DNA of 64,000 nucleotides. It comes from Actinomycetota bacterium (GTDB taxonomy: Bacteria > Actinomycetota > Acidimicrobiia > Acidimicrobiales > Poriferisodalaceae). Below, in pieces: positions 6,230-37,556 of this stretch. The translations under genes and the position numbers were made by a program. The notes under the pieces are model-generated. The model did not search any database. It worked only from the letters and a program-made list of their open reading frames with translations, and had not been told where the DNA came from. The stretch spans positions 1 through 64,000 of the forward strand of contig JABABU010000034.1 in NCBI GenBank assembly GCA_014238065.1, given 5' to 3'. The first letter of the stretch is position 1; the number at the start of each line of letters is the position of its first letter.

Positions 6230-6234
6230 CTGAC

Positions 6235-8551: not shown

Positions 8552-9282
8552 CTGACCAGCGTACCGATGGAAGCGCCCTCGACGACGGCACGGAAGTTGC
8601 CAGGGGTCATCACGTCGAACACGACGATCGGCGTATTGTTGTCCTTGCACACGGCGATGGCTGCGCTGTCCATGACGGCGAGCTCGTTGCTCAGAACGTC
8701 GAGGAACGTCACATCCTCAAGCAAAGTGGCGTCGGGAATGGTACGCGGGTCGGCGGTGTACACGCCGTCAATCCCAGAATGGGTGCCTTTCAAGACGACG
8801 TCGGCCTCGATCTCGACGGCACGAAGCGCCGCAGCCGTGTCGGTGGTGAAGAACGGATTCCCGGTTCCGGCAGCAAAGATCACGACCCGTCCCTTTTCGA
8901 GGTGTCGGACCGCCCTGCGGCGGATGTATGGCTCAGCCACCTGCGCCATGCCGATCGCCGTCATCACCCGGGTTGGCTGACCAAGACGCTCAAGAGCATC
9001 CTGGAACGCGAGTGCGTTGATAACGGTGCCGAGCATGCCCATGTAGTCGGATTGGGCCCGGTCCATACCACCGGACGCGCCCGTCATCCCGCGCCAGATG
9101 TTGCCGCCGCCGACCACGAGAGCGATGTCGATCTTGCACTCTCGACGGACCTCGACGATCTCGGCTGCGAGACGTTCGAGAACAACTGCGTCGAGACTCT
9201 CTTCTTTTGCTCCGAGTGCCTCGCCCGACAACTTCAGAACGACGCGCTTCCAATTCGAACGTGAGGAAGAAGAGTCAGACAA
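8548..9282 (-). CDS. pyrH: UMP kinase
   Basis: PyrH phosphorylates UMP to UDP and belongs to the amino acid kinase fold rather than the NMP kinase fold. The 244-residue protein has [11 protein letters not shown] near residue 14, the glycine-rich loop [10 protein letters not shown] near 56, and the nucleotide-binding segments [20 protein letters not shown] and [16 protein letters not shown]. The length is typical. It starts 3 bp after the tsf stop and overlaps frr by 4 bp, so tsf-pyrH-frr form one tightly packed unit. Confidence 0.96.
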
Positions 9283-9285
9283 AAT

Positions 9286-10080
9286 CTATGAGCCAATCTC
9301 GATCTGGGAGAAGTTGCGGATCTCATTGTTGCCCAGAAGTTGGCTGATCGTCTGCTTTTCGTCGCGGACCCACTTCTGCTCGAGCAACGTGTGCTCCTGG
9401 TACCAGGCGTTGAGGCGCCCGGCGACGATCTTCTCTATCGCCTGCTCTGGCTTGCCTTCGTTGCGGGTAATGGCCTCGAGGGCTTCACGTTCCGCTTCAA
9501 CGGCCTCGGTCGGCGCTTCGTCGCGGTGGAGGTAACTCGGACGTGAGAAGGCCGCGTGCATCGCGATGTCCCTCGCCAGTTCGCTGGAGTCACCGGAGAC
9601 ATGTACGAGCACGACGTTGACAGCTCGGCCGTTCTGGATGTGCACGTAACCGTTGAGAGCCTCGTCGTCGGCAGCCTCGAAGCGGGCGACTCGGCCGACC
9701 TCGATGTTCTCCTTGAGAGTGATCTTCATGTCGTCGACCTCGGTCGCGAGGGCAGCAACCGCTCCTTCACCATCAGCGGCAACAGCAGCAGCCATGGCAT
9801 CGGCAAGGGCGATGAATTGATCCGACTTGGCGACGAAGTCTGTCTCACACTTGAGTTCGACAGACGCGACCACGGAGTCGGAGATGTGTGATCCGACGAC
9901 ACCTTCGGTGTTGTCTCGGTCGGCACGCGCAGCGCTCTTGGCCAGGCCCTTCTCGCGAAGGAACTTCGCTGCCGCCTCGAAATCGCCGTCGTTGCCTTCA
10001 AGCGCCTTCTTCGCGTCCATCATTCCAGCGCCGGTCTGTTGCCGGAGGGTCTGAACGTCTTTCGCGGTGAAGCTTGCCAT
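9286..10080 (-). CDS. tsf: Elongation factor Ts
   Basis: EF-Ts is the nucleotide exchange factor for EF-Tu. The 264-residue protein begins with a UBA-like domain (VQTLRQQTGAGMMDAKKALE near 9-28) and contains the TDFVAKSDQF contact motif for EF-Tu near residue 80, followed by the two core subdomains. It lies 41 bp downstream of rpsB, as in most bacteria. No oddity seen. Confidence 0.97.
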   Translation of the reverse strand: MASFTAKDVQTLRQQTGAGMMDAKKALEGNDGDFEAAAKFLREKGLAKSAARADRDNTEGVVGSHISDSVVASVELKCETDFVAKSDQFIALADAMAAAVAADGEGAVAALATEVDDMKITLKENIEVGRVARFEAADDEALNGYVHIQNGRAVNVVLVHVSGDSSELARDIAMHAAFSRPSYLHRDEAPTEAVEAEREALEAITRNEGKPEQAIEKIVAGRLNAWYQEHTLLEQKWVRDEKQTISQLLGNNEIRNFSQIEIGS

Positions 10081-10121
10081 CTCGTTGTCCTTGTTACTGA
10101 GTCGTGGTGGGTGACTGAAGC

Positions 10122-11075
10122 TCAGCTGTCTGAGCTGGTCTCTTCCTCGGCAGGAGCTGCGGCCGTTTCCGCAGGAGCCTCTTCCGCAGGAGCTGCGGCC
10201 GTTTCCGCAGGAGCCTCGTCCGCAGGAGCTGCTTGCTCGGCAGCAGCAGCTGCCTCTGCGGCGATGCGGGCTTCACGTTCGGCAGCTGCTGAAGCGGCTT
10301 TGTTGGCCGCTTCAGACTGCTCGATCGCGAAGCGAGCCTCTTGCTCAGGTGAACGGGACGCCGCGGCTACGACGACGCCGCGCTTTTCTGCGATGAAACG
10401 GCCTTCACGGACCGCATCGGAGACGATGCGTGCCATGAGATGGGTCGAGCGGATCGCGTCGTCGTTGCCGGGGATCGGGAAGTCGATCACATCCGGGTCA
10501 CAGTTCGAGTCGACGACGGCAACGACAGGGATCTTGAGGCGGTTGGCCTCGGTCACCGCGATGTGCTCCTTGACGGTGTCGAGAATGAACACTGCGTCCG
10601 GCAGTTTCTCCATCTGGCGTATACCCCCGAGGTTACGCTGGAGCTTCTCCAGCTCACGTCCGAGGAGAAGTGCTTCCTTCTTGGGCATGTTGTCGAAGTC
10701 CCCGACCGCGAGCATGCGCTCGTATTCACGCATCTTCTCGACGCGCTTGGCGATCGTGCGGAAGTTCGTGAGCATGCCACCGAGCCAACGCTGGTTGATG
10801 TAAGGCATCCCGGACGTCTGGGCGAACTGCTGGATAGGGTCCTGGGCCTGGCGCTTGGTGCCGACGAACAGCACTGTGCCACCCTTGGCCACGAGGTCTC
10901 TCACGAACTCATAGGCAACACCGGTCCGCTGCATGGTCTGCTGCAGGTCGATGATGTAGATGCCGTTGCGCTCACCCCAGAGGAAACGATCCATTTTGGG
11001 ATTCCACCGACGGGTTTGATGCCCGAAATGGACTCCTGCTTCGAGAAGCTGGCGCATGGAAACGACGGCTGACAT
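10122..11075 (-). CDS. rpsB: 30S ribosomal protein S2 with Ala/Glu-rich tail
   Basis: S2 is a core protein of the small ribosomal subunit. The 317-residue product opens [20 protein letters not shown] and carries the family blocks [31 protein letters not shown] and GNDDAIRS. The start is the ATG at 11075, with GTAGGAG four bases upstream. The core ends near residue 245; a tail of about 70 residues rich in Ala, Glu and Pro follows and contains a 36-bp tandem repeat. Longer open frames to 11636 run through the upstream genes and are artefacts. A C-terminal extension of S2 is seen in other actinobacteria, but the repeat is a local feature. Confidence 0.96.
10150..10232 (-). repeat. 36-bp tandem repeat in the S2 tail
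   Basis: Two copies of a 36-base unit occupy 10150-10185 and 10186-10221 and differ at one base; the first 11 bases of a third copy follow to 10232. In the rpsB frame the unit encodes [12 protein letters not shown]. The repeat keeps the reading frame, so copy-number change would only alter tail length. Confidence 0.85.
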
Positions 11076-11082
11076 GTCACTC

Positions 11083-11289
11083 CTACCCAACGGTTGCACT
11101 GCACTGGCGCCGACGCTCTTCAGCGACCGTGGGTTGGTACCAGTGGAAGATGTATGTGTAATGCAGCGCCGAAATGGCGCCGAAGAGCGATTGTATCGGG
11201 TCGGCCTCGCCGAACGACGTGCGGCTCGAAGCGAGATACGCCTCGCTTCCGAGTTGCCACGACCAGTCGAGCTGGGACTGAATGGCCAC
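11083..11289 (-). CDS. Possible small protein or frameshifted C-terminal end of the M23 protein
   Basis: This 68-residue frame overlaps the last 170 bp of the M23 gene in a different frame and ends 7 bp before rpsB. Its codons have about 75% G/C at the third position, typical of this genome, while the M23 frame over the same bases has only about 48%. The peptide is normal-looking and aromatic-rich ([20 protein letters not shown], then [18 protein letters not shown]). No ribosome-binding site precedes the GTG at 11289. Either it is a separate gene whose start overlaps the M23 gene, or the M23 gene continues here after a frameshift. I do not recognise the family. Confidence 0.5.
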
Positions 11290-11722
11290 CGAAGAGCACG
11301 GCAGGGTCGACGTATGCGTTGCCGATGCGCGCGCTCACGTGCAGACGATCTCGCGCCGTCGCGACGTGCTGACCGGTTGCAACCTGCTGCCCGGCCGCGA
11401 CGCCGATCGACGCAACCGCACCGTAAGACGTTCTCACTCCGTCGACGTGCAAGACGGTGATGAACAGCCTTCCGGCAACGGGACCCGCGAACGTCACCAT
11501 CCCTGAACGTGCAGCCACGACCGTTTGGCCCGGCATCGTGTCGAACTCGACGCCTCGATTGCCCGGGGCGTACGGGCTCGCTGGCGCCCTGAAGTTGTCG
11601 ATGATCGGCGCGGTCACCGGCCAGACATACGGCCAAGGGTCGTCGGGCTCAGCCGTTGCGTGAACGGTCCCGACAGCGAGCGCGACAAGGACGCCGGCGA
11701 GTACCACAAGTGTTCTGGACAT
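11120..11722 (-). CDS. Secreted M23-family (LytM-like) protein with degenerate active site
   Basis: M23 proteins are usually zinc endopeptidases of peptidoglycan. The product starts with a signal peptide (about 1-24, cleavage near THATA-type VHATA/EPDD) and contains an M23 beta-sheet core at about 50-142. The first ligand motif, normally HxGxD, is here Asn55-Arg-Gly-Val-Glu59. The YxH motif reads SYGAV, and the HLHFE motif reads LHVSAR (His128). So at least two zinc ligands are changed and enzymatic activity is doubtful. An M23 gene near rpsB is common in actinobacteria. Residues after about 145 are Arg/His-rich with abnormal codon use, suggesting that the real reading frame changes near 11289. 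Confidence 0.75.
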
Positions 11723-11785
11723 GCACTTCTCCGCATCTCTCAGGATGAGGGGAAGTAACCGCCGAGGCTCGTGCCCGGCAGGGCG

Positions 11786-12592
11786 CTAGCGGCGTCCGGC
11801 TCCGAGGCTACCGGTGTCGCGATCGACAGCGGCCAGGCGTGACCTCATATGGGCCACGGCCTTGGTGTGAATCTGACAGATGCGTGACTCGGTCACGCCA
11901 AGCACCGAGCCGATGTCGGCAAGCGTCATGTTCTCGTAGTAGTACAGAGCGAGCACCAACTTCTCCCGCTCGGGGAGCAGGTTGATCTGATCCGCCATCG
12001 TATGGCGCTGCTCGTCGTGCTCGAAGGTGTCGACCGGGTTGTCATTTTCGCTGCTCAGCATGTCGCCGAGCGTCGCCGACTCACCATCTTCAGAGCCGAG
12101 CGGGTCCTCGAGGGCGAGCAGACCCGCGTTACCCACCTGGCGAAGCATCTTGCGGACTTGGTCCGGGCGGAGTCCGAGTTCTTCGCCGAGTTCGTCCTCG
12201 GTCGGAAGTCGGTAGAGCCGAGCGAGGTAGCTCTGGTTGACACGTTCGACCTGACGTGCCTTCGTTCTCACCGAGCGAGGCACCCAGTCATACGAACGCA
12301 GCTCATCGAGGATGGCGCCGCGGATGCGGGACATGGCGTAAGTCTCGAACTTGAAGCCTCGCTCTGGCTCGAACTTCGCGATGGCGTCGATGAGTCCGAA
12401 CATGCCGTTGCTCATGAGCTCTGGCTGTTCGACACTGCCGGGAAGCCCGGCTGCAACACGGCTGGCGACGAACTTCACCAGCGGCGCATAGTGGACAATC
12501 AGGCGATCACGATCGTCCTGTGACCTATCCGAGCGGTACCGTGACCACAGCCTTTCAATCGTGTTTGTGTCGTTGCTGGAGTGTTCGGTCAC
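11786..12592 (-). CDS. whiG: RNA polymerase sigma factor, WhiG/FliA family (sigma-28 type)
   Basis: Directs RNA polymerase to an alternative promoter class. The 268-residue protein has region 2 (LIVHYAPLVKFVASRVAAGL to FETYAMSRIRGAILDELRS), the diagnostic DWVPRSVR stretch near residue 102, region 3 (RLPTEDELGEELGLRPDQVR) and region 4 with the helix-turn-helix (MTLADIGSVLGVTESRICQI). In Streptomyces whiG is also beside rpsB and drives sporulation; in motile bacteria the same family drives flagellar genes. No flagellar or sporulation gene is in this window, so the regulon is unknown. The GTG start at 12592 lies 15 bp after the xerC stop. Confidence 0.9.
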   Translation of the reverse strand: MTEHSSNDTNTIERLWSRYRSDRSQDDRDRLIVHYAPLVKFVASRVAAGLPGSVEQPELMSNGMFGLIDAIAKFEPERGFKFETYAMSRIRGAILDELRSYDWVPRSVRTKARQVERVNQSYLARLYRLPTEDELGEELGLRPDQVRKMLRQVGNAGLLALEDPLGSEDGESATLGDMLSSENDNPVDTFEHDEQRHTMADQINLLPEREKLVLALYYYENMTLADIGSVLGVTESRICQIHTKAVAHMRSRLAAVDRDTGSLGAGRR

Positions 12593-12607
12593 TGATTCCC
12601 TGAATGT

Positions 12608-13504
12608 TCATGCTCGCGGATGGCTCGCTTCGAACACACGCCTAAGACGTTCCTTGCTGACGTGTGTATATAGCTGCGTAGTACCCAAGTCGGCATGTCC
12701 GAGGAGTTCTTGAACACTTCTAAGATCTGCTCCTCCATCAAGCAGGTGCGTTGCGAAGGTGTGACGGAGCGCGTGCGGGTGCGTCGGCACCACAGAACGG
12801 CGGTCGAGGATCCTGCGCGCATCGCGTGGCGTAAGCCGTTTTCCCCTTGTGTTGAGGAAGATTGCGTCAGGAGCTTCGTCACCGCCGGCGCAAACGGTCT
12901 CGACAAATTCGGACCTTCCGGTACGGACCCAAACCCACAGCGCTTCAGTCGCTGGCGCAGAAAGTGGTACCCGCCGCCACTTGCCTCCCTTACCCATCAC
13001 GTCAACAGTCGATGCAGACAGGTCAATGTCGGAATGTCCGAGCGAACACGCTTCTGCTATCCGGAGGCCCGAACCGTAGAGCAGCTCGAGGAGCGCAGCG
13101 TCACGCCGGCCTGTTGCCGAGCTTGCGTCTGCATCTGGACGATCGAGCAGATCCGCGACCTCTTCGTCTTTGAGGACGCGGGGCAATCGCGACTCGCCCC
13201 TGGGCGCTGTCAGGCCCACGGTGGGGTCGACGGAGATTCGTCCGCGACGGTGGAGCCAACCGAAGTATCGCCGCAGCGACGACGCTCGACGGGCGAGCGT
13301 GGTCGGCGCCAAGCCCGAGGTCACACCGAACGCCAGGTACCGCCGTAGATGGATTCGCTCGACCAAGACGGGAGTGTCGATCTCGGCACGTCGTAGCCAG
13401 TCGGCGAGCTGCTCGACGTCTCGCCGGTAGGCGCGACGGGTCGCCTCGGACACGCTGGTCAGAGAAACCAGAAAATCGTCGATACTCCACGCGGCCTGCG
13501 ACAC
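12608..13504 (-). CDS. xerC: Tyrosine recombinase XerC
   Basis: Resolves chromosome dimers at dif together with a partner Xer protein. The 298-residue product has the N-terminal SAM-like DNA-binding domain (1-105) and a catalytic domain with the complete set of active-site residues: Arg148 (SGLRIAE), Lys172, His244 and Arg247 (HALRHTFATHL), His270 (LLGHADLGTTQLYTH) and Tyr279. The location between dprA and the sigma gene is the chromosomal xerC position in actinobacteria, so this is not evidence for an integrated element. The start is GTG at 13504. Confidence 0.93.
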   Translation of the reverse strand: MSQAAWSIDDFLVSLTSVSEATRRAYRRDVEQLADWLRRAEIDTPVLVERIHLRRYLAFGVTSGLAPTTLARRASSLRRYFGWLHRRGRISVDPTVGLTAPRGESRLPRVLKDEEVADLLDRPDADASSATGRRDAALLELLYGSGLRIAEACSLGHSDIDLSASTVDVMGKGGKWRRVPLSAPATEALWVWVRTGRSEFVETVCAGGDEAPDAIFLNTRGKRLTPRDARRILDRRSVVPTHPHALRHTFATHLLDGGADLRSVQELLGHADLGTTQLYTHVSKERLRRVFEASHPRA

Positions 13505-13585
13505 GTGATCCGAAGATACCGATCGCGGCGCGCTGTTCGGAAGCAGGGTTCAGAAGCAAGAGATGAAGAACAGCTTCGGACGGCT

Positions 13586-14704
13586 TCATGAACGCTGCCA
13601 CCATCCGCCGATGTCTTTGACATGGTTGACCGACTCCAGCTCGCTCAGCCGCGACAGAACAGTCGACACCTCGAGGCCGGTGCGCGCCATGACAGTGTCG
13701 ATGGAAGTCCCGTCGTAGTCCACCGCTTCGAGCACGTCGACAAGATGCTCATCGACATGGCGCTCTGTCAGTTCGCGGACCTGCCCACCGCAGGACGAGT
13801 CGCTCAGACCGAGCGCCACGAGCACGTCGGACAGCTCACTCACCGGGGCGCACCCTTGAACAAGAAGGCGATTCGTTCCCAGTGACTGGGGGCTCGTGAC
13901 GGGGCCAGGAACAGCCATCACGACCCTGTCACGCTCGAGTGCAGCGTCAACTGTGTGGAGAGAACCCCCGGTCGCCACCGACTCGACCACGACAACCACA
14001 TCGGCAAGGGCTGCGATGATGCGGTTCCTCGCAGGAAACCGCCACTTGGCCGGCTCGACGCCGAGTGGTGCCTCCGACCACAGTCGACCTTTCGCTGCGA
14101 CTTCGGTCCACAGTCGGGCATTGTTTCGCGGGTAGATCACGTCGAGCCCAGAGCCCACGACACCCACCACTCGCCCTCCGGCGTCGAGCGCGGCCCGCTG
14201 TGCTGCCCCGTCGATGCCGACAGCAAGTCCGGACACCACGGCGACGTCATGAGCGGCCAAGCCTCTGCCGAGAGTCGCTGCAACGTTCCTGCCGTAGTGG
14301 GTCGAGCGGCGACTCCCGACAATGGCGACCGCTGGCGACTGTCGTCCGGTCAGTGGGCCAGTGCCGAACAGCACCGCTGGCGGAGCAGGATCGAATTCTT
14401 CGTCGATAGGCCAATCTGCGCTTGCGGCAGTGAGCACATCGATCCGACACTCTGTGTGTCGGCGCCACATTTCGTCGACGTCGAGGTCGCGCGCCTCGGA
14501 CCTCCACTGCGCCACGAGAGCTTCACTCACTCCGGCCACCCCGAGATGTCCGGGGTAGTCGGCGCCGGACGCCGAGCACAGCATGGACCACGTTGCACGC
14601 GGACCTCGGTCTCCGACGATCGCATCGATGCGTCTCGGACCCATACCGGGCAGTGCAGTGAGCGCCGCGAAGAAAGCAGCGTCGGGTATTGGCTTCGGGC
14701 TCAT
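13586..14704 (-). CDS. dprA: DNA-processing protein DprA
   Basis: DprA binds incoming single-stranded DNA during transformation and loads RecA. The 372-residue protein has an N-terminal helical region (GMGPRRIDAIVGD near 20), the Rossmann-like core (IVGSRRSTHYGRNVA near 130, VVSGLAVGIDGAAQRAAL near 155, GSGLDVIYPRNN, ARNRIIAALADVVVVVE) and a C-terminal winged-helix domain (about 305-372). The ATG at 14704 overlaps the comM stop in ATGA. With comM it suggests a capacity for DNA uptake or recombination; no pilus genes are seen here. Confidence 0.94.
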   Translation of the reverse strand: MSPKPIPDAAFFAALTALPGMGPRRIDAIVGDRGPRATWSMLCSASGADYPGHLGVAGVSEALVAQWRSEARDLDVDEMWRRHTECRIDVLTAASADWPIDEEFDPAPPAVLFGTGPLTGRQSPAVAIVGSRRSTHYGRNVAATLGRGLAAHDVAVVSGLAVGIDGAAQRAALDAGGRVVGVVGSGLDVIYPRNNARLWTEVAAKGRLWSEAPLGVEPAKWRFPARNRIIAALADVVVVVESVATGGSLHTVDAALERDRVVMAVPGPVTSPQSLGTNRLLVQGCAPVSELSDVLVALGLSDSSCGGQVRELTERHVDEHLVDVLEAVDYDGTSIDTVMARTGLEVSTVLSRLSELESVNHVKDIGGWWQRS

Positions 14705-16224
14705 CGACCGACTGCAGCGAGCAGCCTGCTCGGATCTGCCCTGAGGTTCATCGCGGCCCGGATCCCATCGGAATCAATGGGCACATCGTCTCCTGCGAGG
14801 TCCGACATCGTGAGAGCCACTCGTCGGATGCGCTGCACCCCACGAGCGGAAATGCAGCCACGAGACAACTCTTCGCGTAGCACGCCGAGCGCGCTGTCGG
14901 TCAACGGAGCAACCTCGTCCATCGCGTCGTCCGGTATCGCCGCGTTGAATTCGAAGCCACGCACCAACGAGCGATCCCGGCATGTCGCTACTCGGCCGGC
15001 CACATCGACGCTCGGCTCACCTGAGGGACCATCGACCACCGCTTCCGGCGCGGGACGCTGAACAAGGACCCGGAGATCGAACCGATCGAGAAACGGACCT
15101 GACAGTCGACGTCCGTACCGGTACCGCTCACGATCGCTGCATCGGCACCAGCCGGGACGGCCGGCCTCGCCGCACGGGCATGGGTTCATCGCCGCGACCA
15201 ACAGAAACTCGGCGGGAAAGGTGGTAGAGCCCTGACTTCGCGTCACCCGAATCGCGCCCTCCTCGAGTGGCTCACGAAGCATCTCGAGACAGCTGGGTGC
15301 GAATTCGCCCATCTCGTCGAGGAAGAGAATCCCTCGGTGCGCCATGCTGATCTCGCCGGGACGCAGAGTGGCACTCCCTCCCCCGACAAGCGCGACCGCC
15401 GACGAGCCGTGATGAGGTGCCCTGACCGGCGGTCGTCTGATGAGTCTGCCCCTTGGCAGGCTGACTCCGACCGCGTTGTGAATGAGCGACACTTCGAGTG
15501 CGGCGTAGTCGTCGAGATCAGGTAGCAGGCCGGCAACTCGGCGAGCCAACATCGTCTTGCCAGATCCTGGTGGTCCGAGCATCAGTAGATGGTGACCGCC
15601 AGCAGCAGCAACTTCGACTGCGAGACGACCAAGTGGCTGACCACGAACATCGGCGAGGTCTGCGCTGCAGAAGTCCTTCGGTTGGGTTCCGGTCGCATAC
15701 GTCGGGGGTTCCGGCCATGACGCGAGGCCGGTCAGCGCTTCGATCAGCCCGCGGAGCGTCCCTGCGCCCTTCACCGTGACATCTGGCGCGAGATCTGCGT
15801 CGCTCACCGAACTCTGAGCCACGACCACTTCGGTGTCGGCCAAGCTTGCAACAATCGGAAGGATGCCATTCACAGATCGAATGGCACCATCCAGACCGAG
15901 TTCACCGACAAACGACCGGCCGACAACAACGTCGGACGCCAACTGATCGGTCGCTACCAGGAGCCCGATCGCGATCGCGACATCGAGCGACGAACCGGTC
16001 TTGCGAACCCCGCTCGGAGCGAGGTTCACGGTGACACGTTTACCAGGCCACTCGTGGCCACTCGACATGAGCGCAGCACGGACGCGGTCGCGCGCCTCAC
16101 GGCATGCGGCGTCGGGAAGTCCGACGATGGTGAAACTCGGGATGCCGTTCGATGCATGCACTTCGACACGAACCGGGATGCCGGCAATTCCGGAGAGTGT
16201 GGCTGACGACACGACTGCCAACAT
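14701..16224 (-). CDS. comM: YifB/ComM family Mg-chelatase-like AAA+ ATPase
   Basis: ComM-type helicases promote branch migration during natural transformation. The ~507-residue protein has the N-terminal Lon-protease-like domain (GIPVRVEVHASNGIPSFTIV near 13), the Walker A loop GPPGSGKTM, Walker B GILFLDEM, the zinc-finger-like CPCGEAGRPGWCRCSD and the C-terminal Mg_chelatase_C region. I chose the ATG at 16224 (MLAVVSSATLSG) because it matches the family start; an in-frame ATG six codons upstream (16242) is possible. The neighbour yraN, common upstream in actinobacteria, is absent; the next gene upstream is on the other strand. Confidence 0.93.
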   Translation of the reverse strand: MLAVVSSATLSGIAGIPVRVEVHASNGIPSFTIVGLPDAACREARDRVRAALMSSGHEWPGKRVTVNLAPSGVRKTGSSLDVAIAIGLLVATDQLASDVVVGRSFVGELGLDGAIRSVNGILPIVASLADTEVVVAQSSVSDADLAPDVTVKGAGTLRGLIEALTGLASWPEPPTYATGTQPKDFCSADLADVRGQPLGRLAVEVAAAGGHHLLMLGPPGSGKTMLARRVAGLLPDLDDYAALEVSLIHNAVGVSLPRGRLIRRPPVRAPHHGSSAVALVGGGSATLRPGEISMAHRGILFLDEMGEFAPSCLEMLREPLEEGAIRVTRSQGSTTFPAEFLLVAAMNPCPCGEAGRPGWCRCSDRERYRYGRRLSGPFLDRFDLRVLVQRPAPEAVVDGPSGEPSVDVAGRVATCRDRSLVRGFEFNAAIPDDAMDEVAPLTDSALGVLREELSRGCISARGVQRIRRVALTMSDLAGDDVPIDSDGIRAAMNLRADPSRLLAAVGR

Positions 16225-16356
16225 GACGTCGCTTCCCTTCATTGGCCCGATGGGGCGGATGCAAGGGGAAGTCCGGAGCTGGCGGTGGGCTGAGGTGAAC
16301 CTAGCTGGGGACTGGGACACCCTCCACCCGGAGGCGACGAGGCCAACCTGTCCATC

Positions 16357-23503: not shown

Positions 23504-23803
23504 ATGTCCAATCTGGTCCGCAATCTGATCATGGCGGTGGTCGCTCTCTGCAGTCTGTCGCTACTGGCGCGCGTGCTGTTCGACACGCCGTGGTGGGGCA
23601 TCTTGGTCGGGTTCAGCCTGGCAGTGGTGTGGGTCACGATCTATTCCGTTGCCGTTGCGCGCGGGATACCGCTCGCCCCGGACGCGTTCCGAAGAGGCAA
23701 CAATGCCAACCCCGCGCTTGCGAGTTACGCACCACCGATCTGGGTCGCGCTGGTGCTGCTTTGGTTTTGCGCAGGCTGGTTCATCACGAATGGCGGTGGC
23801 TGA
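23504..23803 (+). CDS. Small hypothetical membrane protein
   Basis: A 99-residue protein with three likely membrane helices (about 8-27, 30-53 and 77-95) and a short cytoplasmic or external loop with RGNNANPALASYAPP. It begins 7 bp after the preceding stop on the same strand, suggesting co-transcription with the AttH-like gene. No family recognised. Confidence 0.65.
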   Translation: MSNLVRNLIMAVVALCSLSLLARVLFDTPWWGILVGFSLAVVWVTIYSVAVARGIPLAPDAFRRGNNANPALASYAPPIWVALVLLWFCAGWFITNGGG

Positions 23804-24009: not shown

Positions 24010-24570
24010 ATGGTTGTTCCCGTCGATCGTGGCTACCCCGGACTCGGGCGACCGAAAACGCCAACCCCTCCACCGCGCTGGCCAAAGGCCATCATCTGGC
24101 TACTGCTCGCCTGCGGGGCGCTGGTCGGCGTAGGCTGGCTGATCCTCGTCGGCATGTACGACGTGCACCAAGTCGGCTCGGACAACATGTCGCCGACCCT
24201 CGAGATCGGCGACCGCATCTACTCGCGTCCAGCGGTGTCCGCGGGACGGGGCGACATCGTCATCTATTACAGCGTCGCCGTTGAAGGACCCGCCATCGGC
24301 AGGGTGGTGGCCATCGAAGGCGATGTCGTGAGCACGGTGAACGGGACGCTCACGCTCAACGGCATCCTCATCCGCGAGTCCTACCTGACCGATGGCATCG
24401 ATACGACAGGTGTCGTCGAGACCGTGGTTCCGACCCAGCACTACTTCATTTTCGGGGACAACCGATCGAACTCGTTCGACTCCAGGATTTTCGGTCCCGT
24501 GTCAGGCGATACGCTCCGCTCGCGTGTCAGGTTCATCGGTTGGCCTCTTGGTCGTTTGGGTGGGCTCTGA
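24010..24570 (+). CDS. Signal peptidase I homologue lacking the catalytic Ser and Lys
   Basis: Signal peptidase I removes signal peptides using a Ser/Lys dyad. This 186-residue protein has the family layout: one membrane helix (about 27-49), the box that normally reads SMxPTL, the GDIV box, the GD box and the late GDNRSNSFDSR box (149-159). The nucleophile box reads GSDNMSPTL, with Asn59 where Ser is required. The lysine box, normally YxKRVxGxPGD, reads AIGRVVAIEGD, with Gly97 instead of Lys. Box E and the fold are well kept, so it looks like a maintained pseudoenzyme rather than a decaying gene. No true signal peptidase is in the window. Confidence 0.82.
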   Translation: MVVPVDRGYPGLGRPKTPTPPPRWPKAIIWLLLACGALVGVGWLILVGMYDVHQVGSDNMSPTLEIGDRIYSRPAVSAGRGDIVIYYSVAVEGPAIGRVVAIEGDVVSTVNGTLTLNGILIRESYLTDGIDTTGVVETVVPTQHYFIFGDNRSNSFDSRIFGPVSGDTLRSRVRFIGWPLGRLGGL

Positions 24571-24572
24571 AA

Positions 24573-25805
24573 TCACGCCTCAACGACTCGCTGCATGTCG
24601 ATCACCTGGCGGTGAGACGAGGTCCACAGCATCAGTGCCACGAAGCCTGTGCATGTCATCGTTATGATCGCGGTTGTCACGCCGTGGCGTTCGGCGATCT
24701 CGCCGAGAATGGTCGACCCGACGGGCAGGGCTCCGATCGACATGCCGAGCAGTCCCATGGCACGTCCCCTCACCTCAGGGCTTGCGACGTTGAGCACGAG
24801 AACCGACTGGGTTGCCCCGAACATGCCACTTCCGACGCTCGCTACATACAACGCAGCCATGGCCAGCGGAAGCGAATTGGCCAGCGCAAACGGAATCAAC
24901 ATCAGCATCGCGAACGACATTCCAGCCACGTAGAGCCTGCCGTTACGCCTCGGACGCAACGTCGCGATGATGACCGCAGCGGTCATCATCCCGAAACCCG
25001 TGCACGAAGCGAGAAGACCGATCTGACTGGCCGAGATTTCCAAGCGATCGCCGACGCGCTGAATCGCCGGGAAATACGCGAAAAAGAACAGGTTCGCAAT
25101 GATCGTCACACCAAGGATGCTGCGGAGCCCGACGTTTGTCTTGGCCAGCGCGAAACCCTCTTTCAGTTCGCGCAGCGGCCTCGACGCTGAAATCTTCGGT
25201 GGAGTAGCGACCGACGGCGGGAGCCGCAGGAAGAACATCAGGCTGACGATGAACAGGCACGAAAGGACCAGAAAGCCCTCGCCTACCCCGAGCAGCGCAA
25301 CCATTGCCCCACCGAGAAGGTTCCCGACCACCATCCCCGAGGACTGCGATGTCGACTCGAGCGCGACCGCGTTGTCGAGACGTGCTGCCCCCACGATGTC
25401 GACGACAAGGGCGCGTCGACTCGTCATGTCACTGACCCAGGCGAAGCCTGACGTGACGAGCAGGGGAAACACCATCCATGTCTCGAGATTTCCTGCGCGT
25501 TCGAACAGGCCCAAGGCCAGGGTCACAGGAATCATCAGCAGGAATTGCCCTCTGACGATCTTGACCTTGTTGTAACGGTCAGCGATCACACCGCCGATGA
25601 CGCCGCCAAACAGCATTGGCGCCCAGATGGACGTTCCTGTCAGCTGTACGAGGCGCGGCGAGTCGGTCACCTCGTTGATGTGATACGCGGCGATGAAGGC
25701 CACACCCCAGCGTCCCCAGAACCAGCAGATTCCGCTCAGATAGAACCAACGGAAACCTGGTGCGTCGAACGCAGGGAACAGACGACGCCGCGCAGCTGAT
25801 GTCAT
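24573..25805 (-). CDS. MFS transporter
   Basis: A 12-helix major facilitator superfamily permease, 410 residues. It shows the loop 2-3 motif GGVIADRYNKVKIVRG (about 70-85) and the repeat motif near LYVASVGSGMFGATQSVLVL. The ATG at 25805 overlaps the stop of the upstream amidohydrolase in ATGA, so the transporter is translationally coupled to it and probably moves its substrate or product. The closest general type is the enterobactin/macrolide exporter-like MFS group, but direction and substrate are not determinable. Confidence 0.85.
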   Translation of the reverse strand: MTSAARRRLFPAFDAPGFRWFYLSGICWFWGRWGVAFIAAYHINEVTDSPRLVQLTGTSIWAPMLFGGVIGGVIADRYNKVKIVRGQFLLMIPVTLALGLFERAGNLETWMVFPLLVTSGFAWVSDMTSRRALVVDIVGAARLDNAVALESTSQSSGMVVGNLLGGAMVALLGVGEGFLVLSCLFIVSLMFFLRLPPSVATPPKISASRPLRELKEGFALAKTNVGLRSILGVTIIANLFFFAYFPAIQRVGDRLEISASQIGLLASCTGFGMMTAAVIIATLRPRRNGRLYVAGMSFAMLMLIPFALANSLPLAMAALYVASVGSGMFGATQSVLVLNVASPEVRGRAMGLLGMSIGALPVGSTILGEIAERHGVTTAIITMTCTGFVALMLWTSSHRQVIDMQRVVEA

Positions 25806-27475
25806 CCCATTGGGGCTTGCCGAGGAACCCCGCCGAGCACCGTTCCCCACACCCCGATGTCCTTCAGTGCCTTCGGATCGACGGCATATGGATCGTCGTC
25901 GAGTACGGCAAAGTCAGCCAGCTTGCCGGCTTCGATGCTGCCCATCTCGTGATCGAGGTTCAGTTGAAGAGCCGCGCCGATGGTGCATGCGTGCAGCGCG
26001 TCATCGACTGTGATGCGTTCGTTCTCACCAAGAACCTCCCCGGATGCCGTCAGCCGATTCACCGCGCACCATGCGACGTGCAGATGACCGAGCGGGGTGA
26101 CGGGAGCGTCACTGTGAATCGAAAACGGGACGCCCTCGCGCAATGCGGTGGCGCACGCATCCATTCCCTCGGCCCGTTCGGGACCCACAGTGAGGGCGCG
26201 GTGCTGGTCACCCCAATAGAACATGTGGTTGCTGAAGATGTTGGCGTACATGCCAAGGGCAGCCATTCGCCGGTACTGCGCCTTCGTCGTCAACTGACAA
26301 TGCTGGACGGTGTGGCGGTGATCGAACCTCGGATGTCGTTCGAGCACCCGCTCGACCGCGTCGATGAACACCTCGCTTGCCTCGTCACCATTGCAGTGAC
26401 AGTGCACCGTGAGGCCGCGGTGGTGATATTCGAACAGCGTGTCGGCCGCGGTCTCCGGTGGTAACAGCCAGAGTCCGTTTCCGGGATGCCCCGGGGGAGC
26501 GTCGTAGTAGTGCGGCCAGCCGAGTCGGGCAGTGAATCCCTGTATCGAGCCGTCGAGCACGAGTTTCACGATGCCGAACCGAAGTTTGTCTGTCTGCTCG
26601 TTCTCCTTCACCTCGACAGCCCGTTCGGCCAACTCTGCCGGCGACTTCGGCTGACCACGCCCAAAGCTGATCGACATCATCATCCTGACTGGGAACTCTG
26701 GGTCGTCGACCACTCGGTGAAGCTGCTCGACACGTTCGTCCTCGAGGTGGCCTCCCGCAAGGTCGGTCACCAGCGTGTGGCCGGCGTTGCGCGCCTCGTA
26801 GCCGTAGTTCCACAGCGAGTCGTCGCCTCCCATGAACATGCCGAACCCGACAGGTCCTGACGCAAGACCCATCGCCGCTGGCTCCTGGAGCTCGCCATTC
26901 GGCTGACCATCGGAATCCTTGTCGACACCAGGCGTCATTGTGTCTGCGGTGATGTCAGCGAGACGCATCGTTGCCGAGTTGACGGTGGCGAGATGGAAGC
27001 TGGCGTGGTTCACATACACGGGGCGGACTTCACTGACCTCGTCGAGGTGCTTGGCGTAAAGTCGCTCACCCTCGTAATAGATCGGATCGAGTCCCCATGC
27101 CAGCAGGGGTCGGTCGTCGTCTGCGCCGTCTGCGGCCATCTTGTCGCTGACCTCTTTGAGGCGGGCAACAATATCGGCGATGCTCTTGCAGCCGGCCCAG
27201 ACGACTCCGTCTGGGGCCCGCCGATCGAAGTATCCGACGTAGGTGTAGGCCCACATCGCGCCGGCGCCGGAGTGGCTGTGGGCTTCGATGAAGCCTGGCA
27301 TGATCACCTTGTCGGCAAACTGGTCATCAACGACACAGTCTCCCCATGCCGACAGCTCGTCGACCGACCCGACGCCGAGCACGCGACCATCCCGTACCGC
27401 CACGGCGGGCCCTTGTGGATTGGCCGGATTCATCGTGATCACGCGTCGCGCTGTATAGATCGTGGTACTGATCAT
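25802..27475 (-). CDS. Amidohydrolase family 3 (YtcJ-like) protein, paralogue 1
   Basis: A metal-dependent hydrolase of the amidohydrolase superfamily, 557 residues. The metal motif HxH is at His66-Ser-His68 (GFIEAHSHSG). A lysine that may be carboxylated lies in GIVKLVLDGSIQG, followed by VHCHCNGDEA, TVQHCQLTT and the Asp motif SIHSDAPVTP. The start is the ATG at 27475; the frame to 27523 lies in the upstream gene. It is 10 bp after ggt and overlaps the MFS gene by 4 bp. Two paralogues of identical length lie nearby (29119-30792 and 35837-37510). The likely substrates are N-acyl or formamide-type amides, but this is inference. Confidence 0.87.
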   Translation of the reverse strand: MISTTIYTARRVITMNPANPQGPAVAVRDGRVLGVGSVDELSAWGDCVVDDQFADKVIMPGFIEAHSHSGAGAMWAYTYVGYFDRRAPDGVVWAGCKSIADIVARLKEVSDKMAADGADDDRPLLAWGLDPIYYEGERLYAKHLDEVSEVRPVYVNHASFHLATVNSATMRLADITADTMTPGVDKDSDGQPNGELQEPAAMGLASGPVGFGMFMGGDDSLWNYGYEARNAGHTLVTDLAGGHLEDERVEQLHRVVDDPEFPVRMMMSISFGRGQPKSPAELAERAVEVKENEQTDKLRFGIVKLVLDGSIQGFTARLGWPHYYDAPPGHPGNGLWLLPPETAADTLFEYHHRGLTVHCHCNGDEASEVFIDAVERVLERHPRFDHRHTVQHCQLTTKAQYRRMAALGMYANIFSNHMFYWGDQHRALTVGPERAEGMDACATALREGVPFSIHSDAPVTPLGHLHVAWCAVNRLTASGEVLGENERITVDDALHACTIGAALQLNLDHEMGSIEAGKLADFAVLDDDPYAVDPKALKDIGVWGTVLGGVPRQAPMG

Positions 27476-27485
27476 CTCTCCCCAG

Positions 27486-29102
27486 TCAGACCCCGGCTGC
27501 GAGTCCCTTGCTGCCAGCTCCACGCACCGTAGCTCCGCGTTTGTCGAATTCGGCTATGTGCGCGCTTCCTCCGACATCGGCGACGGCATCCACCACGTGC
27601 CCAAGCGCCTCGAGTTCAGCGATGAGACCGGGATCGAGCGTGTCCGAGACCTCGACTCGCGAATGGGTGACGTGCATCCTCGGGGCCAGAACCGCTTCGG
27701 AAGCACTGGCGTCGAAGTCGACGAGTCGCTGGGCGATCTGCGCTCCGACACTGACGATTCTTCTTCCTCCGGGAAGACCGCTGGCGACATCTCGTCCTGG
27801 CAGCCGCGTGATCATCGGAGCAACGTTGTTCAGAGGTCGTTTGCCTCCGGCAATGCTGTTTGGTCGTCCAGACCGCGGATCGAGTCGGCTCATACCGTGA
27901 CCGAGGATCATTCCCGTTCCGGGGACACTGAGACACGAACCAAAGGCGGCGCCATGGGTCAGCGTCAGGGCAACAACATTGCCCACAGCGTCGGCAGTCG
28001 ACAGATGCAGAGTTCCGTGATTCGACGCCGTCGGTTCAAGTGGCGCAGAATCGTTGCCCAGCCTGTGGTCTCTCAGCTGGGAAGTCCTGGCCCTGGCATC
28101 AGAGCGCGACAGAATTCGCTCGATGTCGACATCGAAGAACTCCGGGTCAGCGAGGGTTGTCAAGCGGTCCCGCCACGCGATCTTCAGGACCTCCGCCATC
28201 ACGTGCCAATACTCGATCGAGTCATCGTCCATGACCTCGATGGTGTCGAGCAAGTTCAGGATCTGAAGGCTCGTGATGCACCCGTTCGGCAGCGGTGGTC
28301 CAGAGATGGTGGCATCGCGAAATGTCGTCGTGTACGGCTGCGAGATCGTCGGTTCGAACAACTCCATGTCGGTCATCGTGAGCAGTCCGCCGTCGGCCTG
28401 AACAGCGTCGACGATCCGCTGTCCGAGCTCGCCGGTGTAGGCCTCTCGCCACCCGTTCTCCGAAATGCGCATGAGCGTCGTGGACATTCCGGGCCGGTGC
28501 CAGACATCGCCAGGCGCGGGGAGTCGACCGTCGGGCATCAGAACAGCCGCTGTGTCGGGATAACCGGCCAAAACCGGTTGCATCTCGCGAAGACAGTGCG
28601 CCGTGAACTCCGAGTACGTCACCCCACGCTCGACGAGGTCGATCGAGGGCTGGACGATCGCCGACCAGGGCACACTCCCCCACTGCTCCCACAGCGCGCC
28701 GATGCCTCCGATGACACCTGGCGTTCCTATCGATTGTCCTCCGAAGAGATTCGCGTCGCCTTCCACCGTGCACAGGTACTCGTCTTCATTGATGCCGGCT
28801 CTGCCGGGCTCTGGGTCGCTGACATCGAACATCTCGGCATGAGCGGCCCGCGGAGCCGTCGAACTCGAGTCGAGCGCGAGCACCGTGTCCGTTCGAGCAT
28901 CGAGCACGACGGCCGACAGCACGTACCCGCCGATACCTGTCATCTCTGGCCGGGCCATGCAGCACCCGAGCGCTGCCGCTGCTGCTGCGTCCATCGCGTT
29001 GCCACCAGCCGCGATCACCTCTGCACCGATCTCGCTGGCCTCTGGGGGCCACGCCGCGACGACACCCGACGACGACTCGACTTCAGATGCCAGGGTGACC
29101 AC
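27486..29102 (-). CDS. ggt: Gamma-glutamyltransferase family protein
   Basis: GGT enzymes are N-terminal-nucleophile hydrolases that cut gamma-glutamyl amides such as glutathione. The 538-residue proenzyme has the large-subunit start (AAGGNAMDAAAAAALG near 31-46, TGIGGYV near 55) and the autocleavage and nucleophile site at Thr364 (NHGTLHLSTAD, equivalent to the usual TTHxS). A small-subunit core with GTGMILGHGMSRLDPR and PLNNVAPMI follows. There is no signal peptide, so it is probably cytoplasmic, unlike the secreted classical enzyme. The GTG start at 29102 follows GGAGGAGGAG. It lies between two paralogous amidohydrolases with 16- and 10-bp gaps. Confidence 0.87.
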   Translation of the reverse strand: MVTLASEVESSSGVVAAWPPEASEIGAEVIAAGGNAMDAAAAAALGCCMARPEMTGIGGYVLSAVVLDARTDTVLALDSSSTAPRAAHAEMFDVSDPEPGRAGINEDEYLCTVEGDANLFGGQSIGTPGVIGGIGALWEQWGSVPWSAIVQPSIDLVERGVTYSEFTAHCLREMQPVLAGYPDTAAVLMPDGRLPAPGDVWHRPGMSTTLMRISENGWREAYTGELGQRIVDAVQADGGLLTMTDMELFEPTISQPYTTTFRDATISGPPLPNGCITSLQILNLLDTIEVMDDDSIEYWHVMAEVLKIAWRDRLTTLADPEFFDVDIERILSRSDARARTSQLRDHRLGNDSAPLEPTASNHGTLHLSTADAVGNVVALTLTHGAAFGSCLSVPGTGMILGHGMSRLDPRSGRPNSIAGGKRPLNNVAPMITRLPGRDVASGLPGGRRIVSVGAQIAQRLVDFDASASEAVLAPRMHVTHSRVEVSDTLDPGLIAELEALGHVVDAVADVGGSAHIAEFDKRGATVRGAGSKGLAAGV

Positions 29103-29118: not shown

Positions 29119-30792
29119 TCAGTCCGCTGTGGACTGGTAGGCGACTCCGCCGACGACGGTTCCCCACACCTTGATGTTCTTCAACTCGACAGGATCGACC
29201 TCGTACGGATCGTCCTCGAGCACCGCAAAGTCGGCAAGCTTGCCAGCCTCGAGGCTGCCGATCAGGTGATCCATCTTGATCTGATGTGCGCCGCCGATCG
29301 TGCAGGCGTACATTGCGTCGTGCACCGAGATGCGCTCGTGCACGCCCAGAACGTCACCATCAGGGGTGATCCGGTTCACTGCGCACCAGGCGGTGTGGAG
29401 ATGGCCCATCGGAGTGACCGGCGAGTCCGAGTGAATCGAGAACGAAACGCCTTCCCGAAGCGCGGTAGCGCACGCATCCATGCCCCTGGCCCTCTCGGGG
29501 CCAACGGTGAACTCACGGTGTTGATCACCCCAATACCAGATGTGATTGCTGAAGATGTTGGCGCACATGCCCAGTGCCGCCATCTTGCGATATTGCGCCT
29601 TCGTGGTGAGCTGACAGTGCTGAACTGTATGACGGGTGTCGAACCGCGGGTGGTTCTCGAGCGCGGCCTCTACGGCATCGACGAACACCTCGGTGGCCTG
29701 GTCACCATTGCAGTGACAGTGGACGGTGAGCCCTCGTCGGTGGTACTCGGTGACGATCTCGGCCATCTGGTCAGGCGGCATGAGCCATATGCCATTCTCG
29801 GCAGCATCCTCCGGCGGGTTCATGTACTGCGGCCAGTTGAGGCGGGCCGTGAAGCCTTGGATCGAACCGTCGAGCACGAGCTTGATGATGCCGAAGTGCA
29901 GCTTGTCGGCCGAATCGGCGACCTTGTCAGCGACCTGATCGGCCAAATCGCCATGGTCGGTCGCTCCAGTGAACTCGGGCGAGACGGCAAGCATTGCCCG
30001 CAGAGGAAAAGCCGGGTCTGCCGTGACCTGTTCCCACCCTGAGAGGCGTTGCTCTGTGAGGGCCGCCCCACCAAGGTCAGTCACGGTGGTCACGCCGCAA
30101 TTCCTGGCTTCGAACGCGTAACGCCAGAGCGAGTCAGGAGAGCCCATCTCGGACATGAGCTTCGCGAACGCCGAGCCGGCCAGCTGCATCGCTGCCGGTT
30201 CCTGAAGCTCTCCGTTCGGCACACCATCCTCCCCGAGCGGGATGCCAGGAGTCGGCGTGTCGGCACCGATGCCTGCAGCATCGAGCATTGCCGTGTTCAC
30301 CGTCGCGAGGTGACCACTGGCGTGATGAAGAAAGATCGGTCGCGTGGTGGAAACCCTGTCGAGATGCTGCCGATACATGCGCTCACCGGCAAAATACAGC
30401 GGGTCGACGCCCCAAGCAATCAGCGGCTGATCCTCTGGGATGTCGTCAGCGTTCATCTGCTCATTGAGTTCAGCCACACGGTCGACGACCTCGTCGATCT
30501 TCCCGCAACCCCGCCACAGCTTGCCTTCAGGAGAACGCCTGTCGAAGAAGCCGACGTACGGATACGTCCACATGCCACCCGACATCGCGTGACAGTGACT
30601 CTCGACGAACCCCGGCATCAGCACCTTGTCGGCGAACTTGTCTTCGATGGTGTGTTCGCCCCAGGCTGCAAGCTCGTCAACAGTGCCAACGCCGAGGACC
30701 TTGCCGTCTCGGACCGCGATCGCACTACCTGTCGGATTTGCCGGATTCATCGTTCGGATCATCCGAGCGCGATAGATCACCGTGTTGCTCAT
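29119..30792 (-). CDS. Amidohydrolase family 3 (YtcJ-like) protein, paralogue 2
   Basis: The first gene of the amidohydrolase-ggt-amidohydrolase-MFS operon; 557 residues, co-linear with paralogues 1 and 3. Metal motif His66-Cys-His68 (GFVESHCHAM); lysine segment GIIKLVLDGSIQG; VHCHCNGDQA; TVQHCQLTT; SIHSDSPVTP. The ATG at 30792 is preceded by AAGGGGGA. The 188-bp spacer upstream separates it from the divergent fadB-like gene and should hold both promoters. Substrate not known; the operon with ggt suggests a chain of amide-bond cleavages. Confidence 0.87.
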   Translation of the reverse strand: MSNTVIYRARMIRTMNPANPTGSAIAVRDGKVLGVGTVDELAAWGEHTIEDKFADKVLMPGFVESHCHAMSGGMWTYPYVGFFDRRSPEGKLWRGCGKIDEVVDRVAELNEQMNADDIPEDQPLIAWGVDPLYFAGERMYRQHLDRVSTTRPIFLHHASGHLATVNTAMLDAAGIGADTPTPGIPLGEDGVPNGELQEPAAMQLAGSAFAKLMSEMGSPDSLWRYAFEARNCGVTTVTDLGGAALTEQRLSGWEQVTADPAFPLRAMLAVSPEFTGATDHGDLADQVADKVADSADKLHFGIIKLVLDGSIQGFTARLNWPQYMNPPEDAAENGIWLMPPDQMAEIVTEYHRRGLTVHCHCNGDQATEVFVDAVEAALENHPRFDTRHTVQHCQLTTKAQYRKMAALGMCANIFSNHIWYWGDQHREFTVGPERARGMDACATALREGVSFSIHSDSPVTPMGHLHTAWCAVNRITPDGDVLGVHERISVHDAMYACTIGGAHQIKMDHLIGSLEAGKLADFAVLEDDPYEVDPVELKNIKVWGTVVGGVAYQSTAD

Positions 30793-35836: not shown

Positions 35837-37510
35837 TCAGGTGGTTCCCGCCTCAATCGGAACACCTCCGAGCACTGTCCCCCACACCTCGATGTCTCTG
35901 AGTCGCATCGGGTCGATCTCCAGTGGATCTTCGGCCAGCACCGCGAAGTCGGCGAACTTTCCCGCCTCGATCGAGCCGACGAGGTGGTCCATCTTGATCT
36001 GGAACGCAGCCCCGAGAGTGATCGCGTACAGCGCGTCGACAACCGAGATCTTCTCGAACTCACCAAGGGTGTCACCCGATGGAGTGACACGGTTCACGGC
36101 GCACCACGCCACGTGCAACGACCCGAGGGGCGTGACACCGGCGTCACTGTGGATCGAGAACGAGACACCTTCGCGAAGCGCGGTCGCGCAAGCATCCATG
36201 CCACGCGCCCGTTCGTGGCCCATGGTGAAGTCGCGATGCTGATCACCCCAGTACCAAAGGTGATTGGTGAAGATGTTGGCGCACATGCCGAGGGCCTTCA
36301 TTCGCCTGTACTGCGCCGACTTCGTGAGCTGACAATGCTGCACCGTGTGGCGATGATCCCAGCGAGGATGCCGCTCGAGGACCTCCTCGACCGCGTCCAG
36401 GTATGCCTCTGTTGCTTCATCGCCGTTGCAGTGGCAGTGAACGGTGAGACCCTTTTCGTGGTAGGCCATCAGCACATCGGCGATCTGGTCGGGGGCGGTG
36501 AGCCAGATGCCGTTGCCTGGATGCCCTGCGGGCGGGTCGATGTAATAGGGCCAGCTGACCCGAGCGGTGAAGCCCTGGATCGAACCGTCGAGGAACAACT
36601 TCACCACGCCGTAATGCAGCTTGTCGGTTCCCTCCGACTTCATCTCGGCTGCTACTGCTGCGAGTTCCGTCGGAATCGATGGTCGATCGCGAGGAACAGA
36701 TGCGGCTCGGACCACCCTGGTCGGGAAACCCGGGTCTTCCACGATCGATGACCACAACTCGTTGTCAGCAGCATCGAGCGGGCCGCTGGCGAGGTCGATC
36801 ACGGTTGTGTGGCCGGTGTTGACGGCTTCTCTTCCGAAGTTCCAGATCGCGTCCGGGTGAGCGCGAGCCGCGAGCATCACCGCCTGAGCCTCGGTGGCGA
36901 GCTGCATCGCCGGAGGCTCCTGCAACTCCCCGTTGGGTTCACCGTCGACGTCCTTGTCGACGCCAGGCGTCGTTGAGTCTCTGGTGATGCCCTCGCGCTC
37001 CATGAGCGCGGAATTCACGGTGGCGAGATGGCCACTCGCGTGTTGGATGAAGATGGGCCGTGTCACCGATACCTCGTCGAGATGACGCCCGTACATCCGC
37101 TCACCTTCGAAGTACAGCGGATCGACTCCTCTCCCGACGAGCACTTCATCCTCAGCAGCACCATCGGCCCGCATTGCCTCATCGGCTTCCTTCAGGCGAC
37201 CGACGACCTCAGCGATGCTCTGACAACCCGGAATGATCTGCCCATTCGGCGCCATGCGGTCGAAGTAGCCGACGTAGGGCATGGCCCAGATCATCCCGGA
37301 CATCGCGTGGCAGTGAGCCTCCACCAGCCCCGGCATGAGCACCCTGTCCTCGAATCGGGTATCGACGGTGTGATCTCCCCAGGCGGCAAGTTCGTCGACG
37401 GTTCCGACGCCGAGAATCCGTCCGTCTCGCACCGCGACCGCCGATCCCTCAGGATTGGCCGGATTCATCGTGATGATCTTTTTCGCCGTATAGATGGTGG
37501 TCTTCGACAT
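35837..37510 (-). CDS. Amidohydrolase family 3 (YtcJ-like) protein, paralogue 3
   Basis: 557 residues, the same length and layout as the two paralogues upstream of the MFS gene. Metal motif His66-Cys-His68 (GLVEAHCHAM); lysine segment GVVKLFLDGSIQG; VHCHCNGDEA; TVQHCQLTK; SIHSDAGVTP. The start is ATG at 37510 after AGGGGGAAGCG; the open frame to 37732 lies in the ClC gene and is not used. It is 46 bp after the ClC gene and is followed by an SDR gene. The HSDAGVTP change (Pro to Gly) relative to paralogues 1 and 2 is near the last metal ligand and may mark a different specificity. Confidence 0.87.
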   Translation of the reverse strand: MSKTTIYTAKKIITMNPANPEGSAVAVRDGRILGVGTVDELAAWGDHTVDTRFEDRVLMPGLVEAHCHAMSGMIWAMPYVGYFDRMAPNGQIIPGCQSIAEVVGRLKEADEAMRADGAAEDEVLVGRGVDPLYFEGERMYGRHLDEVSVTRPIFIQHASGHLATVNSALMEREGITRDSTTPGVDKDVDGEPNGELQEPPAMQLATEAQAVMLAARAHPDAIWNFGREAVNTGHTTVIDLASGPLDAADNELWSSIVEDPGFPTRVVRAASVPRDRPSIPTELAAVAAEMKSEGTDKLHYGVVKLFLDGSIQGFTARVSWPYYIDPPAGHPGNGIWLTAPDQIADVLMAYHEKGLTVHCHCNGDEATEAYLDAVEEVLERHPRWDHRHTVQHCQLTKSAQYRRMKALGMCANIFTNHLWYWGDQHRDFTMGHERARGMDACATALREGVSFSIHSDAGVTPLGSLHVAWCAVNRVTPSGDTLGEFEKISVVDALYAITLGAAFQIKMDHLVGSIEAGKFADFAVLAEDPLEIDPMRLRDIEVWGTVLGGVPIEAGTT

Positions 37511-37556
37511 CGCTTCCCCCTCGGTCGACACAAACTGCGTACCGGACCGTCTCATG

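What the first reader, a model, noticed from the sequence alone, without database searches (positions are those of the whole stretch)
24010..24570. Signal peptidase I homologue without its catalytic Ser and Lys
The fold-defining boxes are well preserved, including GDNRSNSFDSR, but the nucleophile is Asn (DNMSPTL) and the general-base Lys is Gly (AIGRVVAIEGD). Loss of both dyad residues with good preservation of the rest points to a selected pseudoenzyme, perhaps a binder of exported proteins or a regulator of the active peptidase. Bacillus and Staphylococcus have inactive SipA-type paralogues, so a precedent exists.
Basis: partly seen in the sequence, partly recalled or inferred. Interest (0 to 1): 0.55.

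Follow-up and report, generated by a model that had tools for sequence, protein, structure and literature searches.

The report
Dead signal peptidase with dead relatives
This gene encodes a membrane protein shaped like the enzyme that trims exported proteins, but without its cutting residues; a few related bacteria carry similar disarmed copies, so it probably works as a binder or helper rather than a protease.

Summary
Observation confirmed. Window 24010-24570 (+) encodes a 186-aa S26/signal peptidase I homologue with Asn59 in place of the Ser nucleophile and Gly97 in place of the Lys base. A shifted Ser-Lys dyad is excluded: there is no lysine after residue 26. The same genome has one canonical Ser/Lys signal peptidase, on another contig near Tat genes.

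Four other genomes (three of the same family, one of another family in the order) carry divergent S26 copies that also have Gly at the Lys position (5 of 5 including this one; 0 of 126 comparison rows). They share an Asp before box B and group as one clade (ultrafast bootstrap 82; 96 without the motif columns). Asn59 is not conserved (N/S/A/S/G). Three members have also lost boxes B and E. So the Lys loss looks ancient and the Ser loss later.

The AlphaFold model (pLDDT 72) matches Streptococcus SipA best (Z 14.0), ahead of active signal peptidases (up to 11.8). SipA is an inactive homologue needed for pilus assembly. No pilin or sortase family was found among the window genes scanned.

Best reading: a membrane-anchored pseudopeptidase that binds exported chains or partners. 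This function is inferred. New clade of a known kind.

The parts
24010..24570 (+). CDS of the signal peptidase I-like pseudopeptidase, 186 aa
   Evidence: ORF; Pfam S26 88.8 bits; TIGR02227 96.7 bits; GC at codon positions 62/48/78%, like its neighbours
24079..24156 (+). single N-terminal transmembrane helix, residues 24-49 of the model
   Evidence: hydrophobic run and helix H24-49 in the AlphaFold model; topology N-in/C-out is inferred from the family
24160..24162 (+). Asp51, shared by all five Lys-less relatives, Gln/Glu in 106 of 126 comparison rows
24184..24186 (+). Asn59 at the position of the catalytic Ser (box B)
24298..24300 (+). Gly97 at the position of the general-base Lys (box D)
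24454..24486 (+). box E, GDNRSNSFDSR, intact
   Evidence: sequence; alignment

Best explanation
It is a membrane-anchored pseudopeptidase of the signal peptidase I (S26) fold. One transmembrane helix places the S26 domain on the outer face of the membrane. The domain cannot cleave by the Ser-Lys mechanism. It most likely binds an exported polypeptide or a membrane partner through the remaining peptide cleft and membrane-facing sheet, holding it for folding, assembly or another enzyme, as proposed for Streptococcus SipA. Shown here: fold, loss of dyad, absence of any lysine for a shifted dyad, presence of a canonical paralogue, and a small clade with the same Lys-to-Gly change. Inferred: lack of activity in the test tube, outside location, peptide or partner binding, and any particular client.
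For: Ser and Lys replaced. No lysine after residue 26. Canonical SES...FIKR signal peptidase in the same genome, near TatC and TatA/B/E genes. Four further S26 copies with Gly at the Lys position. They form one clade with this protein: bootstrap/SH-aLRT 82/85 with all columns, 96/88 after removing the columns of boxes B, D and E. The copies of G002 and G010 have dN 0.45 and dS 1.56, ratio 0.29, with no stop inside. In three genomes of two genera the copy sits next to, and divergent from, an Rv2466c-like gene, so those three are probably orthologous and kept. Cleft-side residues of boxes B and D are kept here (V55, S57, M60, P62, T63, L64, I96; their role in the S1/S3 pockets is recalled). Best fold match is SipA 4n31, Z 14.0, 125 residues, rmsd 3.0; active SpsB 11.8 and LepB 11.7.
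Against: No partner gene is evident: neighbours are an Rv3169-family gene, a 99-aa membrane ORF without a Pfam family, and an MFS transporter on the other strand. The neighbourhood differs from that of the relatives. The three relatives in the same family have lost most of box B and box E, so a conserved peptide cleft is not a property of the whole clade. The model is of moderate confidence (pLDDT 71.6, six sequences). Few members are known: 4 of 39 genomes in the family, 2 of 397 in the order sample. The inactive copies change about 4.6 times faster at amino-acid sites than the canonical ones between the same two genomes (dN 0.454 against 0.098), so constraint is weak.
Confidence: 0.6

Rival explanations
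1. Regulator of the active signal peptidase or of the export machinery: it binds the canonical enzyme, SecYEG/Tat, or competes for signal peptides, rather than serving one client.
For: The canonical enzyme is encoded in the same genome; the cleft-side residues are kept in this protein; active signal peptidase LepB has a non-catalytic scaffold role in colicin D import, as told in the SipA paper (passages).
Against: Not linked to the canonical gene or to export genes in any of the five genomes as far as the fetched stretches show; absent from most relatives that have a canonical enzyme.
Confidence: 0.2
2. Decaying paralogue without function, on its way to loss.
For: Patchy distribution; progressive loss of boxes B and E in three members; fast change. 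Intact ORF alone is weak evidence: a substitution-only neutral simulation left 410 of 2000 copies free of stops.
Against: dN/dS 0.29 between G002 and G010 (dS near saturation, which biases the ratio upwards); full-length S26 domains in all five; conserved adjacency to the Rv2466c-like gene in two genera; shared Lys-to-Gly and Asp51; clade across two families.
Confidence: 0.15
3. Still a protease, with another catalytic arrangement (for example Ser57 as nucleophile or a His as base).
For: L050 keeps Ser at the nucleophile position while its Lys is Gly; His53 and His144 lie after the membrane helix.
Against: No lysine at all in P0002 and P0005; the box D position is Gly, not the His of the eukaryotic/archaeal type (family knowledge, recalled); the position of His144 is also His in the canonical paralogue (PGHVFVMGDNR).
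Confidence: 0.05

Closest known systems
Streptococcus pyogenes SipA (PDB 4n31, 4k8w)
   Same: S26 fold with a small cap domain; Ser and Lys both lost, Lys to Gly in both; best fold match of the model (Z 14.0)
   Different: Ser is Asp in SipA and Asn here; SipA lies in a sortase-pilus cluster (PMC4049620, passages); no pilin or sortase among the window genes scanned
Staphylococcus aureus SpsA
   Same: inactive signal peptidase I paralogue lacking two conserved catalytic residues, beside an active one in the genome (PMC12445088, passages)
   Different: no sequence or structure of SpsA was compared here; its own replacements were not seen
Canonical signal peptidase I of the same genome (G000:C12:149964-150440)
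   Same: same fold and boxes; 37% identity
   Different: has Ser and Lys; the inactive clade has Gly for Lys and Asp51; a tree that holds this protein with the own and G002 canonical copies was 24.8 log units worse but not rejected (p-AU 0.084)

Membership tests
Signal peptidase I / peptidase S26 (sequence and fold) | S26 domain after an N-terminal transmembrane helix | tested here: met
   PF10502 88.8 bits, TIGR02227 96.7 bits, model matches SPase I structures
Active signal peptidase I | Ser nucleophile in box B | tested here: not met
   Asn59; Ser in 126 of 126 comparison rows
Active signal peptidase I | Lys general base in box D | tested here: not met
   Gly97; Lys in 126 of 126 comparison rows; no lysine after residue 26
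Ser-His signal peptidases (ER and archaeal type; definition recalled) | His in place of the box D Lys, Ser kept | tested here: not met
   Gly97 and Asn59
SipA pilus-assembly pseudopeptidase | S26 fold with both dyad residues replaced | tested here: met
   replacement of Lys by Gly is the same, Ser replacement differs
SipA pilus-assembly pseudopeptidase | gene within a sortase-pilin cluster | tested here: not met
   33 window ORFs, this one included, scanned with Pfam: no sortase or pilin family among the hits; not every ORF of the window was scanned; the single sortase of the genome is on contig C54
SipA pilus-assembly pseudopeptidase | needed for pilus polymerisation | not testable with these tools
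   needs a deletion mutant
The clade proposed here (Lys-to-Gly S26 pseudopeptidases) | Gly at the box D Lys, Asp before the box B strand, one clade | tested here: met
   5 of 5 for both residues; clade support 82/85 and, without boxes, 96/88; a quick 135-row tree needed two changes
The clade proposed here (Lys-to-Gly S26 pseudopeptidases) | Asn at the Ser position | tested here: not met
   column reads N, S, A, S, G in the five

The most novel reading that the evidence does not exclude
This bacterial order holds its own ancient family of signal peptidase I pseudoenzymes, arisen separately from SipA and SpsA: a single Lys-to-Gly event was followed by independent loss of Ser and of the other boxes, and the fold was taken over as a non-pilus binder of exported proteins, in one branch kept next to a mycothiol-dependent reductase gene.
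Probability: 0.4. Interest if true: 0.6.

Novelty: new variant of a known kind. Interest (0 to 1): 0.42.

Why it matters
Inactive signal peptidases are known from a few Gram-positive genera, where one is needed to build pili. Finding a separate set, in a genome with no pilus cluster in sight around the gene, would show that this fold has been reused as a binding protein more than once. The five members also suggest an order of events: Lys lost in all, Ser still present in one or two, box E lost in three. That makes the question of what a signal peptidase fold can do without cutting open to test.

Tried and rejected
Shifted dyad: rejected, no lysine in residues 27-186. Sequencing error: unlikely, Lys to GGC needs more than one base change and four relatives share the Gly. 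Simple orthologue search with the protein alone found mostly canonical enzymes; the inactive relatives were found by reading the top list for odd boxes (L050) and by fetching weak second matches. The DNA pattern for GRVVAxEGD (K-to-G box D) hit 9 of 397 genomes at 10 places; only G000 and G346 are S26, the other eight places are other frames or genes, judged by eye. Recent duplication of the own canonical gene: disfavoured but not rejected (p-AU 0.084). Wider presence: a two-row profile in 396 phylum genomes and a five-row profile in 236 gave no match other than the window gene clearly above canonical enzymes; the five-row profile was built from the members, so their high scores are by construction. 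A first dN/dS run used a wrong strand for one canonical gene and was repeated. Sortase link: one sortase in the genome, on another contig, with no pilin recognised by me among the ORFs listed around it; of those only the sortase was checked by family search. Print searches: 'signal peptidase' with 'pseudoenzyme', with SpsA, with 'catalytically inactive' and 'Ser-Lys', with Actinobacteria terms, 'SipA' with pilus terms, and 'type I signal peptidase' with 'Acidimicrobi': none of the listings told of such a clade. The listings were not read beyond titles and abstract starts, except for passages of PMC12445088 and passages plus section 9 of PMC4049620.

Rows dropped before counts: one search kept 138 rows (137 frames after removing identical ones, plus the window protein); one search left out seven rows, two of them by an over-wide filter. 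The 54-row tree left out nine loci with long or odd branches, short rows, and rows over 62% identical to a kept one; in the 135-row quick tree the five needed two changes, not one.

Full report
Observation. The window encodes at 24010-24570 (+) a 186-aa protein. It is a clear member of the S26 signal peptidase fold family: PF10502 88.8 bits, TIGR02227 96.7 bits. Aligned to relatives, its Asn59 stands where the Ser nucleophile is and its Gly97 where the Lys base is. In 126 comparison rows both positions are invariant, Ser 126 of 126 and Lys 126 of 126 (dropped rows are named). Box E, GDNRSNSFDSR, is complete. Residues 27-186 contain no lysine, so no shifted Ser-Lys dyad can exist.

Active enzyme elsewhere. 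The genome has two PF10502 matches: this one and a canonical one on contig C12, with SES...FIKR and box E. The canonical gene lies a few kb from TatC and TatA/B/E genes and from a Pup-ligase gene. The genome is 94.65% complete in 56 contigs, so a third copy cannot be fully excluded.

Relatives. No other genome of the same genus appeared in the searches. Among 39 genomes of the family, four carry an S26 copy of the Lys-less sort: G000, G002, G008 and G010, from three of ten genera. In the 397-genome sample of the order there are two, G000 and G346. In the phylum samples only the window gene stood out (396 genomes, 236 genomes). The copies of G002, G010 and G008 (L121:2947-3456, L122:631-1143, L123:654-1178) and of G346 (L050:1462-2175) all have Gly at the Lys column (SIGRVV, WVGRVL, LIGRVV, VIGRVV). 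All five have Asp at position 51, which is Gln or Glu in 106 of 126 comparison rows and Asp in one. The Ser column reads Asn here, Ser in G346, Ala in G002, Ser in G010 by an ungapped reading of a broken box, and Gly in G008. Boxes B and E are broken in the last three; in G346 box E has GSR for DSR. All are S26 by Pfam, 62 to 93 bits.

One clade. A careful tree of 54 rows puts the five together, 82/85, with this protein and G346 as sisters (99/90) and the other three together (100/99). After taking out the columns of boxes B, D and E, so that shared losses cannot drive the result, the five still group, 96/88. A quick tree of 135 rows needed two changes for the group, and the members sit on long branches, so the clade is likely but not certain. 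A tree holding this protein with the own and G002 canonical enzymes was 24.8 log units worse, p-AU 0.084, not rejected.

Selection. Between G002 and G010 the Lys-less copies have dN 0.454 and dS 1.558 (ratio 0.29); the canonical copies of the same genomes have dN 0.098 and dS 0.998 (ratio 0.10). Between G002 and G008 the ratio is 0.53. Synonymous sites are near saturation. Thus there is constraint, but weak. In G002, G010 and G008 the copy lies divergently beside an Rv2466c-like gene (mycothiol-dependent nitroreductase family). In the window's genome the closest Rv2466c-like gene is on contig C12 with a PAP2 gene as in G002, but with an HpcH/HpaI gene in the divergent place. So the window gene is not at the same site as those three.

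Structure. An AlphaFold model from six sequences (pLDDT 71.6, pTM 0.61) shows one long helix (24-49) and an S26 domain. Its best match among 987 aligned PDB chains is SipA of Streptococcus pyogenes, 4n31, Z 14.0, ahead of SpsB 11.8 and LepB 11.7. By sequence, a profile of the five finds signal peptidases I and IB first and SipA after them. The low-confidence stretches include residues 153-158 in box E.

What it works like. [quoted passage not shown]). The window protein shares fold, Lys-to-Gly change and many cleft-side residues. It does not share the pilus setting: none of the 33 window ORFs scanned, itself included, is a sortase or pilin by Pfam, and the one sortase of the genome is on another contig. 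I therefore take it to work like SipA, as a non-cutting binder on the outer side of the membrane, without calling it a SipA. The client is unknown.

Limits. Activity was not measured. The binding role rests on analogy and on conservation in this one protein; the cleft is not kept in three of the five. The assignment of residues to S1/S3 pockets is recalled. The set is small, and most of the genomes are drafts.

Noticed in passing
L050 / G346:C218:20111-20824: S26 protein with Ser kept but Lys replaced by Gly, no lysine anywhere, GSR for DSR in box E, and a second hydrophobic stretch near the C-terminus: looks like an intermediate state.
   Followed up: partly
L121:2170-2736, L122:1-509, L123:1-417: Rv2466c-like gene divergent from the Lys-less S26 gene in three genomes of two genera.
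   Followed up: partly
L037:1-426 (DDLW01000169.1, titled Alphaproteobacteria): Truncated S26-like frame with LIGRVI at the Lys box, perhaps a separate Lys-to-Gly case; box B lies beyond the held stretch.
   Followed up: no
window 23504-23803 (+): 99-aa membrane ORF upstream of the gene with no Pfam family and only a borderline NCBIfam match (E 0.0099, antiporter subunit G); not found in the stretches fetched around the relatives.
   Followed up: partly
window 25802-27523, 29119-30792, 35837-37732 (-): Three Amidohydro_3 family genes within about 12 kb.
   Followed up: no
window 459-16320: Run of housekeeping genes (NusA, GcpE, M50 protease, DXP reductoisomerase, CTP transferase, EF-Ts, S2, sigma factor, DprA, Mg chelatase-like).
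   Followed up: no
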